Assembly: GCA_016840085.1 (NCBI GenBank)
Contig: JAEOTA010000018.1
Coordinates: 1-64,000 of the forward strand
DNA from: Promethearchaeota archaeon
Lineage (GTDB): Archaea > Asgardarchaeota > Lokiarchaeia > Sigyniarchaeales > SOKP01
DNA length: 64,000 nucleotides
Direction of reading: 5' to 3'
The position numbers were made by a program, and so were the translations under genes. Within the stretch, counting starts at the first letter, position 1, and every line of letters begins with the position of its first letter. Shown piece after piece: positions 13,453 to 40,401 of the stretch. Below the pieces are notes generated by a model. That model had not been told where the DNA came from. It did no database searches and worked only from the letters and a program-made list of their open reading frames with translations.

Positions 13453-14025
13453 ATGAGTGCTGATGATAAAGGATTTGGGTTTAAAATAACAGTAATTGGT
13501 GATGCTGCCGTAGGGAAAACTTCCTTAATTAAAAAATATACTCAAGGCTCATTTCAAAAGGATTATATCTCTACTTTGGGTACTCAATTTTCTAAATATG
13601 AAGAAGTTATTGATGGGGAAAAAGTAGAATTATTCTTATGGGATATTGCCGGTCAGGATTCATTTGAAGCATTACGCCAAAGATTTTATACAGGAAGTAG
13701 TGGAGCAATAATTGTTTTTTCTCACGCTCTAGAACAAACTAAAAGTTATGAGCATGTGAATAAATGGCTTTCTGATCTAAAAAACCATTGTGGAAATATA
13801 CCAATTGTTCTATTTGGTAATAAAATTGATTTAATTGATGATGGAGAGTTAGAGTCAAATCCAAATTTACCTACTGCGAATGCAACGGTAGAACAGTTTA
13901 CCAAGGAGAATAGATTCATAGCATATTATAAAACGAGTGCTTTAACTGGACAAGGAGTAACTGACGCATTTAAAGCATTAGTTAGAAAATTATATGAAAT
14001 TGCTAAAATTTCAAATTTTAGTTAA
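13453..14025 (+). CDS. Rab/Ras-like small GTPase
   Basis: The 190-residue protein has a complete Ras-superfamily G domain: G1 GDAAVGKTS (about 16-24), a switch I threonine in STLGTQF, G3 WDIAGQ, G4 GNKID and G5 TSAL. The order and spacing are Rab/Ras-like, not Arf-like. The C-terminus (ISNFS) has no cysteine, so it is not a prenylation substrate. Asgard genomes carry many such GTPases, thought to relate to eukaryotic trafficking regulators. No GAP, GEF or roadblock/longin gene is adjacent. It is tail to tail with the EF-2 gene. Confidence 0.9.
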   Translation: MSADDKGFGFKITVIGDAAVGKTSLIKKYTQGSFQKDYISTLGTQFSKYEEVIDGEKVELFLWDIAGQDSFEALRQRFYTGSSGAIIVFSHALEQTKSYEHVNKWLSDLKNHCGNIPIVLFGNKIDLIDDGELESNPNLPTANATVEQFTKENRFIAYYKTSALTGQGVTDAFKALVRKLYEIAKISNFS

Positions 14026-14079: not shown

Positions 14080-16392
14080 TTAGGTACGTTTATAAATAAA
14101 TCGTTCCCAACTTTTTCTGCTTGGCATTTCTAGAGGCATACCCTTCCTTTTGCGTATTTCCATGATTATTTCTTCTTCAAATGAAGCAGGGACACGAGAA
14201 AAACCTTCGAATTCATATCCGAAAAACGCTCTGCCTTGGGTTGATCCTCTAATGTCATCGGCGATCCCGATTGTTTCAGCAGCAGGAATCTGGCCTTGTA
14301 TTCGTACATATTCACCTTCAGGAATGACATTAGTAATTCTACCTCTTCGCTTGGTTATGATTGCAGTGACGCTTCCTTCAGTTCCTTGCGGTGTTTTTAT
14401 ATCTATTCTTTGGATTGGTTCATAAAGATGAGGATCTGCTTCCAGCATTGCTAGGGACATAGCTGAAAAAGCCATTCCTGCAATTTGCCCATATTGAGTA
14501 TGTCTTGGGTCTTCGTGCACTACTAAATCTGTGAAAACGATTTTGAATCCTGTTGCTGGTTCTTTTGCTATAATACAATCACCGAGCCAATCTCTAAAGG
14601 CAGCTGATAAATAAGACTTAACTCTATCAAATCGTTGTAACCCCGCAGCACCATTTACAAGTACGCTTCCATGGTATACATCCACTACACGTCTAGCTTC
14701 TTTTGCATCCCACCCAGCTTCTTCTCTTAGAATCATAGCTCTCTCCTTTTCATTTTGCAAATCATTAACTTTTCCAGTGTCTATTAAGTGTTCAGTAACT
14801 TCATCTAAGGGTTCGACATACAATAAAATTCGATTGTGAGTATTAGCTGATTTGGTATAAAATTCTCGACTCTTTTCTGTAATTTTTTCTCTATATATAA
14901 TAATTGGTTCTCCAATGTCGATTTGAACTTGTTTATTAATCCTTTTAGTCAAGATTTCTATTTGTAACGGATCAATTCCAGAAAGTATAAATTCTCCTGA
15001 CTCATCATCCCTCCTATATTCTGCTTCTGGGTTCGCTTTAAGCCATTTGCCTACTACATCATCTAATTTATCAATTTCATGTGGATCTTTTGGTTTGATA
15101 CTTCTTGACACGACAGCTTCACACGCATATTGAATTTTTTCGAAGGGGTGTAACAATGTCCTTTCTTCTCTATTCTTAGGAACTTTGTTTGTCAGCATAA
15201 ATGTTTCACCAGCGGGGCATACAAATCCAAATAATGCAAATAAGTTCCCTGCAGGTATCTTGGGGATATCTAAAATATCAGTTATTTCCATAACACCGAG
15301 CCTTTTCACTCGATTGCTTGAATCACTATTAATTAAATAAATAGAATCTGTTTGATCAAATGTACCAGAAAAAACACGACCTATAAGGGTGGCTTGAAAA
15401 TTTCTTTTAGGGTCTAAAAAGATCTTAGTAATCATCCCAAAAAGTGGCCCATTTGGGTCACTTCTCTGCAAAGATTGACCTAATTCTGAGTTCAAATCAC
15501 CGCCCCAGATATGTGGGATTCGATATTTAGACGCACTAACGGGATCTGGAAGATGGTCAACAATCATTCTTAACATAGGTTCATCTAAGGGTAAATTATC
15601 CCTTAGCCATTGAATATCTCCTTCATTATATTTCGCAAAGACATCTTGAGGTTTAAGATTTTTCTCAAGTAAAATCTCATAAGTAAACCCCCATCCATGT
15701 TTAGCTGAACCTACAGCTACAGAATTCTTTACAAAATCAATTCCCCAATCCGATCCTTCTGGTCTAACCTTTTTAATTAATTCATTTACTTCTCTTGTAA
15801 TTTTATCTATTTTAGCAAAGGTTTCTTGAGGGCTAAGTTTTAATTCACTTATTAGTCTATCAACCTTATTGATAAAAAGAACTGGTTTGCAGTATTCTTC
15901 ACCAACGGACAATCTAATATTTGTCTCAGTTTGAGTCATAACTCCTTCAAGAGCGTCTACTAAAATTATAGCACCATCACTGCCCCTAAGTGCTCTTGAT
16001 ACTTCTCCTGTAAAACTTATATGACCGGGAGTGTCGTTAAGTTGAATAATATAGGGTTCCTCATCTTTTGGTTTTCTAGAATCTTGAAACGCCAGGAGTA
16101 CTACAGTTGTAAATATCGTGATGCCGCGTTCTTGCTCCTCATCTTTCAGTATATTAAGTATGCCTTAATCTAAATCTGAATCGGTCATTTGGAGCTGCCC
16201 AGCATCTTCTGGTCGCATTAATCCCGCTCTACGGAGCAAATAATCAGTAGCAGTAGTTTTTCCATGGTCAATTTACGCTATAATAAGGAAAACTCAATAT
16301 AGATGCGCAGTTATGGAAAAAATTCGCTTCTTTTCATATGATCCAGAGGTCACGAGTTTGGCGATTTCATCTGGGTTCTTTACTTTAACCAC
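14080..16392 (-). CDS. fusA: Elongation factor 2, G domain interrupted by two stop-containing 30-nt inserts
   Basis: EF-2 is the GTPase that translocates the ribosome. The uninterrupted part (14080-15939) covers most of the protein: NKVD, domains II-V and a normal C-terminus. Upstream the same frame continues through DTPGH, QERGITI, DHGKTT and an N-terminus opening at GTG 16392 (VKVKNPDEIAK). It is broken by TGA and TAA in an insert at 16273-16302 and by TAA in an insert at 16144-16173. Removing both gives about 750 residues with a family-like G domain. The domain IV tip reads HEDPRHTQYGQ where diphthamide-type EF-2 has DAIHRGxxQ. It may be a pseudogene, an aEF-2 paralogue, or expressed by RNA excision or bypassing. 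Confidence 0.75.
16144..16173 (-). other. Insert 2 in EF-2 (switch I region), contains TAA
   Basis: These 30 bases separate QMTDSD from DEEQERGITI; without them the distance from GKTT to RGITI is 31 residues, the usual EF-2 spacing. In-frame TAA is at 16165-16167. ATTAAG and CTTAAT form a hairpin with a five-base loop, and flanking TTCAG (16176-16180) pairs with CTGAA near the 3' end. The insert matches insert 1 at 19 of 30 positions. Confidence 0.6.
16273..16302 (-). other. Insert 1 in EF-2 (P-loop), contains TGA and TAA
   Basis: These 30 bases split the P-loop between ITAH and IDHGKTT. In-frame TGA is at 16294-16296 and TAA at 16273-16275. CTATA and TATAG, the first and near-last bases, form a stem, and the flanking TGCG (16306-16309) can pair with CGTA (16274-16277), leaving a 3-base CAT bulge just before the insert. 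Confidence 0.6.
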
Positions 16393-19941: not shown

Positions 19942-20139
19942 ATGGTTAATATTGATAGATTATTAAGACAAGCAATATTTGATGACATGTTGTACTGTCC
20001 TTGTTGTGATTACAGATTATTGGAGCCTGATTATAGGAAATGCTCCCAATGTTATAGAATTAATCCATTAAAGGAAAAGAATTTAATACAAACAGTTACA
20101 TCCCCCACCAGGGATGTTCGAAGGTCCTTTTTAATTTGA
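19942..20139 (+). CDS. Small zinc-ribbon protein
   Basis: A 65-residue protein with two CxxC pairs (CPCC and CSQC about 15 residues apart), a rubredoxin-like zinc knuckle. ATG 19942 is preferred over the in-frame TTG at 19936. Its last 44 bases overlap the 3' end of the convergent aIF5B gene, unusual but not rare in compact genomes. The last ~15 residues look less protein-like, so the functional part may be short. Function is unknown. Confidence 0.5.
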   Translation: MVNIDRLLRQAIFDDMLYCPCCDYRLLEPDYRKCSQCYRINPLKEKNLIQTVTSPTRDVRRSFLI

Positions 20140-21901
20140 TGAATTCTCTTAGAGCTTGTTTTTGATCTGTAGTTAATTCATCAAGAAAATTCCCCATTAA
20201 TTGCCTTACGTGAGACTCTGGGATATTTACATAGAAAACTTCATCTTTTCCGATATCTTTTCCTATTTCAATACCTCGTATAGAAATTGCAACTTCAGAA
20301 TCTTTGGGTGCTTTCTCAATTGTTTGACCTTTATCTTGAATTTGATGGACTCTTCTGACTCTCTTACCGTTTTCAGTGATTAGTGGAACTTTTGGATATA
20401 ATATTCCAGCTTCAATATTTACCCCAAATACAGCAGGATCTGAATTTCTAAATATAAATTCTGGAAGCATTTTAAACTTTGCAGGTAATATTAATTCACT
20501 TAATCCTTTCGCAGTATCTTCAGCTTTTCTAGTTTCGGCGTATTCTATATAATCTTCTAATAATCGATATATAACATTATTTGTAAAAATTCTTATATTA
20601 TCATTATAGGCTTGATCTTCCCCATCAGGTAGAACAGGAACATTAAAACCTAAAACTACTGCACTATAAGGGTCAAAATCTCTAACAATACTTGCATTTA
20701 TTATATCTTCCTTTTTAATAGGTCCTACATCTGCCACACTAATTTTAACTCCTTCCTTAGTAAAAAAATTCTCTAAAGCTTCAAGAGACCCCAGAGTATC
20801 TGCTTTTAATACAACTCCTGCTTTTTCTGTTTTTATACGAATACTTTCTACTTCAGATTCTATTTCGTTATAAACGGTTTCTTCTTCTAATGGATCTGCA
20901 ATACCTCTAAACGGAGACCCTGCTACGACATCTTCAATATTAGGAGCTAAGATTTTAATACCTGCTGCAGCACTAACAGTGTCAACTGAATCAAATCTTT
21001 GTCTTGGATCTCTGATTTCATCCAATGGTTTAGGTATTAATAATGCTCTTGCTTTTGACTTAATTGGTTTTTCTAAACCCCCTACAATGAATTCATCCCC
21101 TTTTTTAATTATTCCATCGTATATTAATACATCTATAGTTTTACCTTGTCCCTTCTCCTTTTTTACCTCCAAAACAACTCCTTTAGCAGAACCCTCAGAA
21201 AATTTAAGATTTGTAGTTAAATATTGTTGGACTAGTCCCATCAGAACTAATAACAATGTTGATATTCCTTCTCCAGTCTTACCGCTTGTAGGCACAATTG
21301 CGACTTTTTTTGTAAAATCTTTTATTTTATCGTATCTATCAATTCCTTTGAAGCCTTCTTCTAAAAAATTTCCCATAATCTGTAAAATTTTTTCATCTAG
21401 AAAGTCTTTTACATGAGGTTTTTGAGTTTTATAAGAATCTAAAAAATCTGCATCTTTTTTTGATTTCCAACCAGATATTCTATCAATTTTATTTGCTGCA
21501 ATTACAAATGGAGTTTTTCTATCTCTTAAAATTCTTACTGATTCCCATGTTATTGGCATTGTTCCCGCAGTAACATCAATGACAAGAATTGCGATATCTG
21601 CAACAGCACCTCCCCGCTTTCTTAAATTTAAAAATGCCGCATGACCGGGAGTATCCACAACTAACATACCAGGAAGTTTAATATCCATTTCAGCAAATTC
21701 TTGTTTGGATTTACTTAAAAATTCTTTAATATCTTTTGTTGGAAAATAAGATGCTCCAATGTGCTGGGTAATACCAGCCGCTTCTCTTTGTTGAACTACC
21801 GTACCTCTTATATAATCTAGAATAGTGGTTTTTCCGTGGTCTATATGCCCTAAGACACAAATAATTGGTGCCCTAATCTTCTTGCTTTCAACTTCAGTCA
21901 T
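20096..21901 (-). CDS. infB: Translation initiation factor aIF5B (IF-2 homologue)
   Basis: This GTPase promotes ribosomal subunit joining and placement of initiator tRNA. G1 GHIDHGKT lies at about residues 18-25, switch II has DTPGHAAF near 80, and G4 is NKID near 137. Domains II to IV follow, ending with the conserved FIKLKRTFEHPWWGM. At 601 residues it has the short archaeal N-terminus lacking the long eukaryotic extension. No intein is visible. Confidence 0.95.
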   Translation of the reverse strand: MTEVESKKIRAPIICVLGHIDHGKTTILDYIRGTVVQQREAAGITQHIGASYFPTKDIKEFLSKSKQEFAEMDIKLPGMLVVDTPGHAAFLNLRKRGGAVADIAILVIDVTAGTMPITWESVRILRDRKTPFVIAANKIDRISGWKSKKDADFLDSYKTQKPHVKDFLDEKILQIMGNFLEEGFKGIDRYDKIKDFTKKVAIVPTSGKTGEGISTLLLVLMGLVQQYLTTNLKFSEGSAKGVVLEVKKEKGQGKTIDVLIYDGIIKKGDEFIVGGLEKPIKSKARALLIPKPLDEIRDPRQRFDSVDTVSAAAGIKILAPNIEDVVAGSPFRGIADPLEEETVYNEIESEVESIRIKTEKAGVVLKADTLGSLEALENFFTKEGVKISVADVGPIKKEDIINASIVRDFDPYSAVVLGFNVPVLPDGEDQAYNDNIRIFTNNVIYRLLEDYIEYAETRKAEDTAKGLSELILPAKFKMLPEFIFRNSDPAVFGVNIEAGILYPKVPLITENGKRVRRVHQIQDKGQTIEKAPKDSEVAISIRGIEIGKDIGKDEVFYVNIPESHVRQLMGNFLDELTTDQKQALREFIKLKRTFEHPWWGM

Positions 21902-38861: not shown

Positions 38862-40160
38862 TTAAGCCCCAGTTTCAATGTCTTTAACAATACCAACGGC
38901 CACGGTTCTTCCCATGTCCCGTACTGCAAAACGACCCATTTCTGGAATCTCTTCGTACTTTTCAAGACACATTTTCTTAATTGGTTGTAACTCAACTATT
39001 GCAGCTTCATTTCTCTTAAGAAACTTTGGATTATCTTCAATCACAGCACTAGTCTTTTGATCTAATTTTTTAGATAAAGCAGTAAATTTTGCAGCGATTT
39101 GAGCTGTGTGCGCATGAATTACAGGTGTATATCCTTGGGCTATTACTGTTGGATGCCAAATAACTATTATCTGACCTGTCCATTTTCCTTTTGGTGTAAT
39201 AACGGTTGGTGGATTTTTAGGATGCCCTAAACAATCACCACGCCCTGCATCTTGCAACGTGATACCTCTAATAGCAAAACCTATATTATCTCCCGGCACT
39301 GCTTGAGGAATCTCTTCATGATGCATTTCAATACTTCGGATTTCTCCTGTAAAACCAGTTGGCATTATGATGACTTGGTCGCCTTTCTTTAGCACTCCAG
39401 TTTCAACTCTACCAACAGGTACAACTCCAGTACCTTTTATCCTATAGGAATCTTGAATTGGTAATCTCAGTGGCTTATCAAGAGGTTTTTCAGGAACAAC
39501 GAACTTATCAATTGCATCAATTAATGTGGGACCATCATACCAAGGCGTTTTATCACTTTTCTTTGATAAGTTCTCCATTGCCATTCCACTCGTTGGCACA
39601 AAGGGCACATCTTTTAGCTTGAAACCGATATTTCTTAAGAGATCTCCAACTGACTCTTTGCATTCATTAAACCTATCCTCAGAGTAATCGTAAATATCAG
39701 CTTTATTCACAGCTACAACTATTTGTTTTACACCTAATGTTTGTGCTAAATATGCATGCTCTCGAGTTTGTCCATTGGCAGCAATTCCAACTTCCATTTC
39801 ACCTTTCTTACCAGAAACGACGAGAATAGCAGCATCAGCTTGAGACGCGCCAGTAATCATGTTCTTGACGAAGTCTGCGTGGCCTGGTGCATCAATAATG
39901 GTAAAATACCTATTTGGCGTTTCAAATTTTCTAAATGCGAGATCAATTGTAATCCCACGTTGTCTTTCTTCTTTTAATTTATCAAAGACGAAAGCATAAG
40001 ACCATGACTCTCTGTCGTATTCTTTAGCGAGTTTCTCTAACTCTCGAGCCTCTCTATCTGTTACTGCTCCTGTCTCAATGAGGAGCGCCCCCATCATGGT
40101 ACTCTTTCCGTGGTCAATGTGTCCAATAATTACCAAATTTAAATGGTCTTTTTCGGCCAT
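38862..40160 (-). CDS. tuf: Translation elongation factor 1A
   Basis: EF-1A delivers aminoacyl-tRNA to the ribosome. G1 GHIDHGKST, the G2 switch I effector region with RGITIDLAFRKFE, G3 DAPGHADF and G4 NKAD are visible, followed by domains II and III ending GRFAVRDMGRTVAVGIV. The family start MAEKDHLNLVI corresponds to ATG 40160; an in-frame ATG nine bases earlier (40169) is also possible. The length of about 432 residues is normal. It is separated from the Arf-like gene by ~275 bp and is not in the ribosomal operon with rps7, unlike in many archaea. Confidence 0.96.
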   Translation of the reverse strand: MAEKDHLNLVIIGHIDHGKSTMMGALLIETGAVTDREARELEKLAKEYDRESWSYAFVFDKLKEERQRGITIDLAFRKFETPNRYFTIIDAPGHADFVKNMITGASQADAAILVVSGKKGEMEVGIAANGQTREHAYLAQTLGVKQIVVAVNKADIYDYSEDRFNECKESVGDLLRNIGFKLKDVPFVPTSGMAMENLSKKSDKTPWYDGPTLIDAIDKFVVPEKPLDKPLRLPIQDSYRIKGTGVVPVGRVETGVLKKGDQVIIMPTGFTGEIRSIEMHHEEIPQAVPGDNIGFAIRGITLQDAGRGDCLGHPKNPPTVITPKGKWTGQIIVIWHPTVIAQGYTPVIHAHTAQIAAKFTALSKKLDQKTSAVIEDNPKFLKRNEAAIVELQPIKKMCLEKYEEIPEMGRFAVRDMGRTVAVGIVKDIETGA

Positions 40161-40401
40161 TTTCATCAATTTCTTTAATTTATTTTGAATAAAATTTTCT
40201 AATTTTTAATTATCAAATAAAATTATTTTTATTAGATGTTAATTTTAAATGTTGATGAGTTTATATTTTTTACTATAATTTATGGTGAATTTTTAGAGTT
40301 ATAGGTATTGACCTATATATTTAATATTATAATACTTTCTATTGGTTAAACCAAAAGAATTTTGGGTAGCTCTTTTTTCGAGTTTTTAATGTTATTACAT
40401 T

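What the first reader, a model, noticed from the sequence alone, without database searches (positions are those of the whole stretch)
14080..16392. Elongation factor 2 interrupted by two in-frame-length, stop-containing inserts
Seen directly: the minus-strand EF-2 frame is continuous from GTG 16392 to the stop at 14080 except for TGA at 16294-16296, TAA at 16273-16275 and TAA at 16165-16167. All three stops fall in two segments that break family-conserved spacing: one splits ITAH from IDHGKTT, the other lengthens switch I. Removing 30 nt at each place restores a normal G domain (31 residues between GKTT and RGITI). The rest of the gene shows no decay. Two independent insertions of the same frame-preserving length in a gene normally essential is hard to explain by random decay. 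Options are a very young pseudogene, assembly artefact, RNA-level removal, or translational bypassing.
Basis: partly seen in the sequence, partly recalled or inferred. Interest (0 to 1): 0.9.

Follow-up and report, generated by a model that had tools for sequence, protein, structure and literature searches.

The report
Tiny spliced introns in archaeal translation genes
An essential translation gene of a Lokiarchaeon carries two 30-letter inserts with stop codons that look like miniature introns cut out of the messenger RNA by the tRNA-splicing enzymes, and similar introns come and go at the same spots in three related translation genes across its relatives.

Summary
The only EF-2 gene in this Lokiarchaeon assembly is broken by two 30-nt, stop-containing inserts (16302-16273 and 16173-16144, minus strand). 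The best explanation is two archaeal bulge-helix-bulge (BHB) introns removed from the mRNA by the tRNA-splicing endonuclease (EndA) and sealed by RtcB. Both inserts fold into a canonical 3-4-3 BHB. The predicted cuts, between bulge nucleotides 2 and 3, fall exactly where the protein frame needs them.

Relatives carry 15 such EF-2 introns in 14 genomes at four sites, and intronless orthologues are common. Across 11 distinct introns, 95% of cells pair and 11 of 13 pairs change on both sides. The same kind of intron occurs in EF-1A (8 genomes) and aIF-2 (2 genomes), often at the equivalent P-loop position. Some are 31-32 nt long and shift the frame, which excludes readthrough. dN/dS is about 0.04, so the gene is not decaying. 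Distribution is patchy, and identical introns sit in genes only 75% identical, which implies mobility.

The known precedent is the crenarchaeal cbf5 intron. No RNA data were available, and the catalytic EndA subunit is missing from this assembly, probably in a gap.

The parts
14080..16392 (-). EF-2 gene (GTG start 16392), three exons: 16392-16303, 16272-16174, 16143-14080
   Evidence: 86-90% identical to intronless Lokiarchaeal EF-2
16273..16302 (-). Intron A, 30 nt (CTATATTGAGTTTTCCTTATTATAGCGTAA), between ITAH and IDHGKTT; holds TGA and TAA in frame
   Evidence: same site occupied in L015/G012 and L048/G018
16144..16173 (-). Intron B, 30 nt (TTAGATTAAGGCATACTTAATATACTGAAA), in switch I between MTDSD and DEEQERGIT; holds TAA in frame
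   Evidence: same site occupied in eight other genomes
16272..16308 (-). BHB of intron A: central helix GCGC (16308-16305) with GCGT (16278-16275); bulges AT/C (16304-16302) and AA/A (16274-16272); 9-nt inner stem strands and 5-nt loop
16143..16179 (-). BHB of intron B: central helix TCAG (16179-16176) with CTGA (16149-16146); bulges AT/T (16175-16173) and AA/G (16145-16143); 9-nt inner stem strands and 5-nt loop
16313..16321 (-). 5' strand of the exonic outer helix of intron A (UUUUUCCAU)
   Evidence: RNA fold; carrier versus non-carrier duplex energies
16257..16265 (-). 3' strand of the exonic outer helix of intron A (AUGGAAAAA)
   Evidence: RNA fold
16191..16195 (-). 5' strand of the exonic outer helix of intron B (GCUCC)
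   Evidence: RNA fold; wobble positions tied to intron presence
16134..16138 (-). 3' strand of the exonic outer helix of intron B (GGAGC)
   Evidence: RNA fold
20096..21901 (-). aIF-2 (IF5B-type) gene, intronless here; its orthologues in G018 and G021 carry P-loop introns
38862..40169 (-). EF-1A gene, intronless here; its orthologues in eight relatives carry introns

Best explanation
The two inserts are short archaeal pre-mRNA introns of the bulge-helix-bulge type. Shown by sequence: each exon-intron junction forms a 3-nt bulge, 4-bp helix, 3-nt bulge, followed by a 9-bp hairpin with a 5-nt loop, and the junction that restores EF-2 is the one EndA would cut (after bulge nucleotide 2 on both strands). 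Inferred: an EndA tetramer of a catalytic alpha and a structural beta subunit cuts both junctions in the EF-2 mRNA, RtcB joins the exons, and the stop codons leave with the introns before productive translation. The introns belong to a mobile population that inserts into conserved GTPase-motif codons of EF-2, EF-1A and aIF-2, and that is repeatedly gained and lost within this Lokiarchaeal family.
For: (1) The central helix is 4/4 in all EF-2 introns tested and the cut register restores the frame; the rule 'between bulge residues 2 and 3' is from PMC2738675. (2) Covariation over 11 distinct introns: 95% of cells paired, 11 of 13 pairs with two-sided changes, none of 500 shuffles as high, and the register is lost when slid by one column. 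(3) Stop-containing 30-nt inserts in 14 genomes at four sites, with many intronless orthologues. (4) EF-1A introns of 30-33 nt in eight genomes with central helix 8/8, and aIF-2 introns in two; lengths of 31 and 32 change the frame. At the shared P-loop site the helix is AUGG/CCAU in EF-2 and EF-1A but ACGG/CCGU in aIF-2 of G018, which uses CAC instead of CAT. (5) Exon wobble bases that build the outer helix of B/C introns: 10 of 11 carriers versus 2 of 42 non-carriers; 8:0 in phylogenetically independent pairs. (6) dN/dS 0.03-0.05. (7) RtcB and an EndA subunit are present; many tRNA genes of this genome are about 30 nt too long, with Lys and Pro isoacceptor pairs differing by exactly 30 nt.
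Against: No RNA or protein data were available. The only EndA homologue in this assembly is the beta-like one without the catalytic His; the alpha subunit seen in most relatives is absent, although its usual neighbour (a V-type ATPase subunit) is absent too, which suggests an assembly gap. The aIF-2 intron of G021 has a central helix of only 3/4, and the minimum-energy fold of one B intron (L017) is not a BHB. Why EF-2 introns are always exactly 30 nt is unexplained.
Confidence: 0.93

Rival explanations
1. Translational bypassing: the inserts stay in the mRNA and ribosomes hop over them, as in phage T4 gene 60 or the byp elements of yeast mitochondria.
For: The inserts form hairpins, carry stops and would have to be skipped precisely at protein level; bypassing would also tolerate lengths that are not multiples of three.
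Against: Matched take-off and landing triplets, known from gene 60 and byps (my knowledge), are absent: CAT against TAA at site A, GAT against AAA at B, GAT against TAG at C. Bypassing does not predict a 3-4-3 BHB with cuts at the junction, nor pairing between the two exons.
Confidence: 0.04
2. A recent pseudogene, or several independent decays of EF-2.
For: In-frame stops in the only EF-2 copy of the assembly; relatives have a 30-33% identical EF-2-like paralogue that could in principle substitute.
Against: dN/dS 0.03-0.05, as in intronless pairs. Decay would not give exactly 30 nt at four sites in 14 genomes, nor covarying stems. No other lesions.
Confidence: 0.01
3. Assembly or sequencing artefact.
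For: The window comes from a metagenome-type assembly in 89 contigs with 7.6% estimated contamination.
Against: The same insert classes occur in MAGs from separate projects, including a record titled as a chromosome, CP070805.1 (L044), and three genes are affected in a structured way.
Confidence: 0.01
4. Other RNA-level removal, for example a self-splicing or spliceosome-like intron.
For: Removal from RNA is required in any case, because some sister introns shift the frame.
Against: At 30 nt they are far too short for group I or II ribozymes, and no Rfam match was found in the window. The BHB register explains every junction except one imperfect helix.
Confidence: 0.01

Closest known systems
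cbf5 pre-mRNA introns of Crenarchaeota (PMC2738675)
   Same: Short introns (16-44 nt) inside a protein-coding gene, BHB at the junctions, cut between bulge nucleotides 2 and 3, patchy presence with loss, and reported alongside hetero-oligomeric EndA.
   Different: One gene, one site, one clade of thermophiles, often relaxed BHB. Here: Lokiarchaeia, three paralogous translation GTPases, several sites per gene, two introns in one gene, mostly canonical BHB, and much faster turnover.
Non-canonical tRNA introns and tRNA intron transposition in Thermoproteales (Fujishima 2010, as summarised in PMC4090602)
   Same: Near-identical short BHB introns in diverged hosts, read as transposition guided by the BHB requirement.
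   Different: Here the hosts are mRNAs. The tRNA introns of this genome are of similar size, but no sequence kinship to the EF-2 introns was found.
High tRNA intron load in other Asgard archaea (PMC11291895)
   Same: Asgard lineages with 92-95% intron-containing tRNA genes, many at non-canonical positions.
   Different: The passages read concern tRNA genes only, in Atabeyarchaeia and Freyarchaeia.
BHB in the 5' UTR of HVO_1309 mRNA, Haloferax volcanii (PMC7714728)
   Same: EndA acts on an mRNA.
   Different: It lies in the UTR and does not interrupt the coding sequence.
Putative 12-bp introns of an archaeal virus (Peng et al., as cited in PMC2738675)
   Same: Tiny insertions in archaeal coding genes suspected to be introns.
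   Different: Splicing was not demonstrated there, and no stop codons or covariation are mentioned in the passage read.

Membership tests
Archaeal BHB introns (EndA-spliced) | Two 3-nt bulges on opposite strands separated by a 4-bp helix at the exon-intron junctions | tested here: met
   4/4 central helix in both window introns, in the other EF-2 introns tested and in all 8 EF-1A introns; 1 of the 2 aIF-2 introns has 3/4
Archaeal BHB introns (EndA-spliced) | Cuts between bulge nucleotides 2 and 3 coincide with the junctions that restore the mature product | tested here: met
   Only one register is possible at EF-2 sites A, B and C, and it is the BHB register
Archaeal BHB introns (EndA-spliced) | Structure conserved by compensatory change | tested here: met
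   11 of 13 pairs change on both sides, 0 of 500 shuffles reach the score
Archaeal BHB introns (EndA-spliced) | Host encodes splicing endonuclease and RtcB ligase | tested here: inconclusive
   RtcB found. Only the beta-like EndA is in this assembly; alpha is in most relatives, including carriers such as G006, G008 and G012
Archaeal BHB introns (EndA-spliced) | Intron removed from the RNA in vivo | not testable with these tools
   No transcriptome available
Translational bypassing (T4 gene 60, mitochondrial byps) | Matched take-off and landing triplets | tested here: not met
   CAT/TAA at A, GAT/AAA at B, GAT/TAG at C, read from the sequences
Group I or II self-splicing introns | Catalytic core RNA | tested here: not met
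   30 nt in length; no Rfam match in the window

The most novel reading that the evidence does not exclude
A mobile family of about 30-nt BHB introns without any encoded homing protein spreads among Lokiarchaea by targeting codons of GTPase motifs shared by EF-2, EF-1A and aIF-2. It pairs with exon sequence to choose the site and makes several key translation factors depend on the tRNA-splicing machinery, a set of protein-gene introns in an archaeal lineage close to the ancestry of eukaryotes.
Probability: 0.6. Interest if true: 0.88.

Novelty: new variant of a known kind. Interest (0 to 1): 0.8.

Why it matters
A 2020 paper still named the crenarchaeal cbf5 intron as the only other archaeal mRNA BHB intron (PMC7714728). 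Here the most conserved translation genes of an Asgard lineage have repeatedly gained such introns, so gene callers will truncate them, as this window shows. The presence/absence pattern among close relatives makes intron gain, intron mobility without a homing enzyme, and the dependence of translation factors on tRNA splicing directly testable. It also adds protein-gene introns to the Asgard side of the debate on intron origins.

Tried and rejected
A covariance model from EF-2 introns found only EF-2 introns in 58 genomes; the strongest of the weaker hits were antisense or intergenic. I first read this as EF-2 specificity, but family searches with EF-1A and aIF-2 profiles showed introns there, so the model is not sensitive to other introns. 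A de novo scan of about 460 kb of the window's genome for BHB-joined open frames gave only adjacent gene pairs and similar false positives (HdrC/HdrB, prefoldin/DHH, L31e/eIF6). A site B pattern found nothing in viral contigs. The 3-4-3 test on the genome's tRNA introns was mixed: several look relaxed rather than canonical. The Narrowe et al. EF-2 paper is not held. Simple exon-exon duplex energy separates carriers from non-carriers only on average; the wobble-base test is sharper.

Full report
WHAT IS THERE. The minus-strand EF-2 gene runs from GTG 16392 to the stop at 14080 and is open except for TGA 16296-16294, TAA 16275-16273 and TAA 16167-16165. The genome is Lokiarchaeial: the named relatives are all Lokiarchaeota or Lokiarchaeia MAGs, and the assembly has 4.68 Mb in 89 contigs at 98.8% completeness. 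It contains no second EF-2, although most relatives also hold a distant paralogue of about 30-33% identity.

RELATIVES. Orthologues at 86-90% identity include genes with no insert at either place. They define the inserts exactly: 30 nt after ITAH (16302-16273) and 30 nt after MTDSD (16173-16144). Other relatives have inserts at the same two sites and at two more. Site A is occupied in G000, G012 and G018; site B in G000, G001, G006, G008, G010, G017, G022, G146 and G148; site C (MTD|SD) in G026 and G030; site D (inside the K codon of HGKTT) in G021. That makes 15 inserts in 14 of 228 Asgard genomes searched. All are in the window's family, all are 30 nt, and all hold an in-frame stop (its match list was cut, so weaker matches outside the family were not all seen).

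STRUCTURE. Every EF-2 insert has the same plan: four exon bases pair with four bases near the intron's 3' end, 3-nt bulges flank this helix on opposite strands, and a 9-bp stem (7-9 pairs formed) with a 5-nt loop follows. This is the archaeal BHB. Published cbf5 introns are cut between bulge residues 2 and 3 (PMC2738675), and that register is the one that restores EF-2 at sites A, B, C and D. Random shuffles of the inserts reach the architecture in 3, 10, 3 and 96 of 200,000 trials. Over 11 distinct introns, 95% of cells pair and 11 of 13 pairs show two-sided change, with 0 of 500 shuffles as high; sliding the register by one column destroys the signal.

OTHER TRANSLATION GTPASES. EF-1A of eight relatives is interrupted too. 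G033 (33 nt), G145, G015 and G001 (32 nt) and G143 (31 nt) have an intron inside the P-loop K codon, the position equivalent to EF-2 site D. G146 (31 nt) has one at GH|IDHG, equivalent to site A. G007 (30 nt) is interrupted just before the P-loop and G003 (30 nt) at GHAD|FVKN. aIF-2 is interrupted at the P-loop K codon in G018 (30 nt, three stops) and G021 (32 nt). The central helix is perfect in all but the last. In total there are 25 introns in 20 of 65 genomes of the family. Lengths of 31 and 32 break the frame unless removed, so readthrough is excluded. The shared P-loop site uses AUGG/CCAU where the exon has CAT and ACGG/CCGU where it has CAC, a compensatory change between host codon and intron.

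EXONS TAKE PART. Around sites B and C the exons form an outer helix GCUCC/GGAGC. The three wobble positions that must be G are all G in 10 of 11 carriers and 2 of 42 non-carriers. Phylogenetically independent pairs go 8:0 in that direction. In the window, intron A has an exonic helix UUUUUCCAU/AUGGAAAAA. Whether these bases are selected for splicing or moved in with the intron cannot be told apart here.

NOT DECAYING. dN/dS for the window gene against relatives is 0.033-0.048, the same as between intronless genes.

MOBILITY. On an EF-2 protein tree, 9 site B carriers need 9 changes and 14 carriers of any intron need 13. The B introns of G001, G010 and G017 are identical in 30 of 30 bases, although the G017 gene is only 75% identical to theirs and its closest relative (G005) lacks the intron. 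Only a short patch next to the intron, at most a few dozen nt, also resembles the donor type. Gain by lateral movement is the simplest reading; the mechanism is unknown.

MACHINERY. RtcB is present. Most relatives have two EndA proteins, one with the classical Tyr-His-Lys residues and one lacking the His. This suggests the alpha-beta type, which PMC2738675 links to relaxed substrates and mRNA introns. The window's assembly has only the beta-like one, and alpha's usual neighbour is missing as well, so a gap is likely but not proven. Many tRNA genes of this genome are about 30 nt too long; Lys (104 against 74 nt) and Pro (104 against 74 nt) isoacceptors differ by exactly 30 nt. Other Asgard genomes are also rich in tRNA introns (PMC11291895).

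VERDICT. RNA splicing of BHB introns is strongly supported by comparison and structure; the splicing step itself is inferred. The kind is known from cbf5. The host genes, lineage, number of sites and turnover were not found in any paper I could search, but the library lacks most subscription papers and all preprints.

Noticed in passing
14080-16392, 20096-21901 and 38862-40169, minus strand: The three translation GTPases that carry introns in this family (EF-2, aIF-2, EF-1A) lie within 27 kb of each other in this window, and close together in G012 too; physical linkage might help introns move between them.
   Followed up: partly
L176, L181, L183 and other tRNA loci: About half of the tRNA genes detected in this genome carry roughly 30-nt introns, some outside the anticodon loop (for example Lys-UUU and Pro-GGG in the variable region).
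   Followed up: partly
G000:C79:3909-4157 (L049): EndA homologue lacking the catalytic His; the catalytic partner and the adjacent V-type ATPase subunit gene are absent from this assembly.
   Followed up: partly
L041 3001-5186 (G012:C3:76137-78322): In the Loki_b32 genome a second copy of the last 43 residues of EF-2 (74% identical) follows about 200 nt after the gene; G030 also has a separate C-terminal EF-2 fragment.
   Followed up: no
13453-14025, plus strand: A Ras/Roc-type small GTPase gene runs convergently, ending about 55 nt from the EF-2 stop.
   Followed up: no
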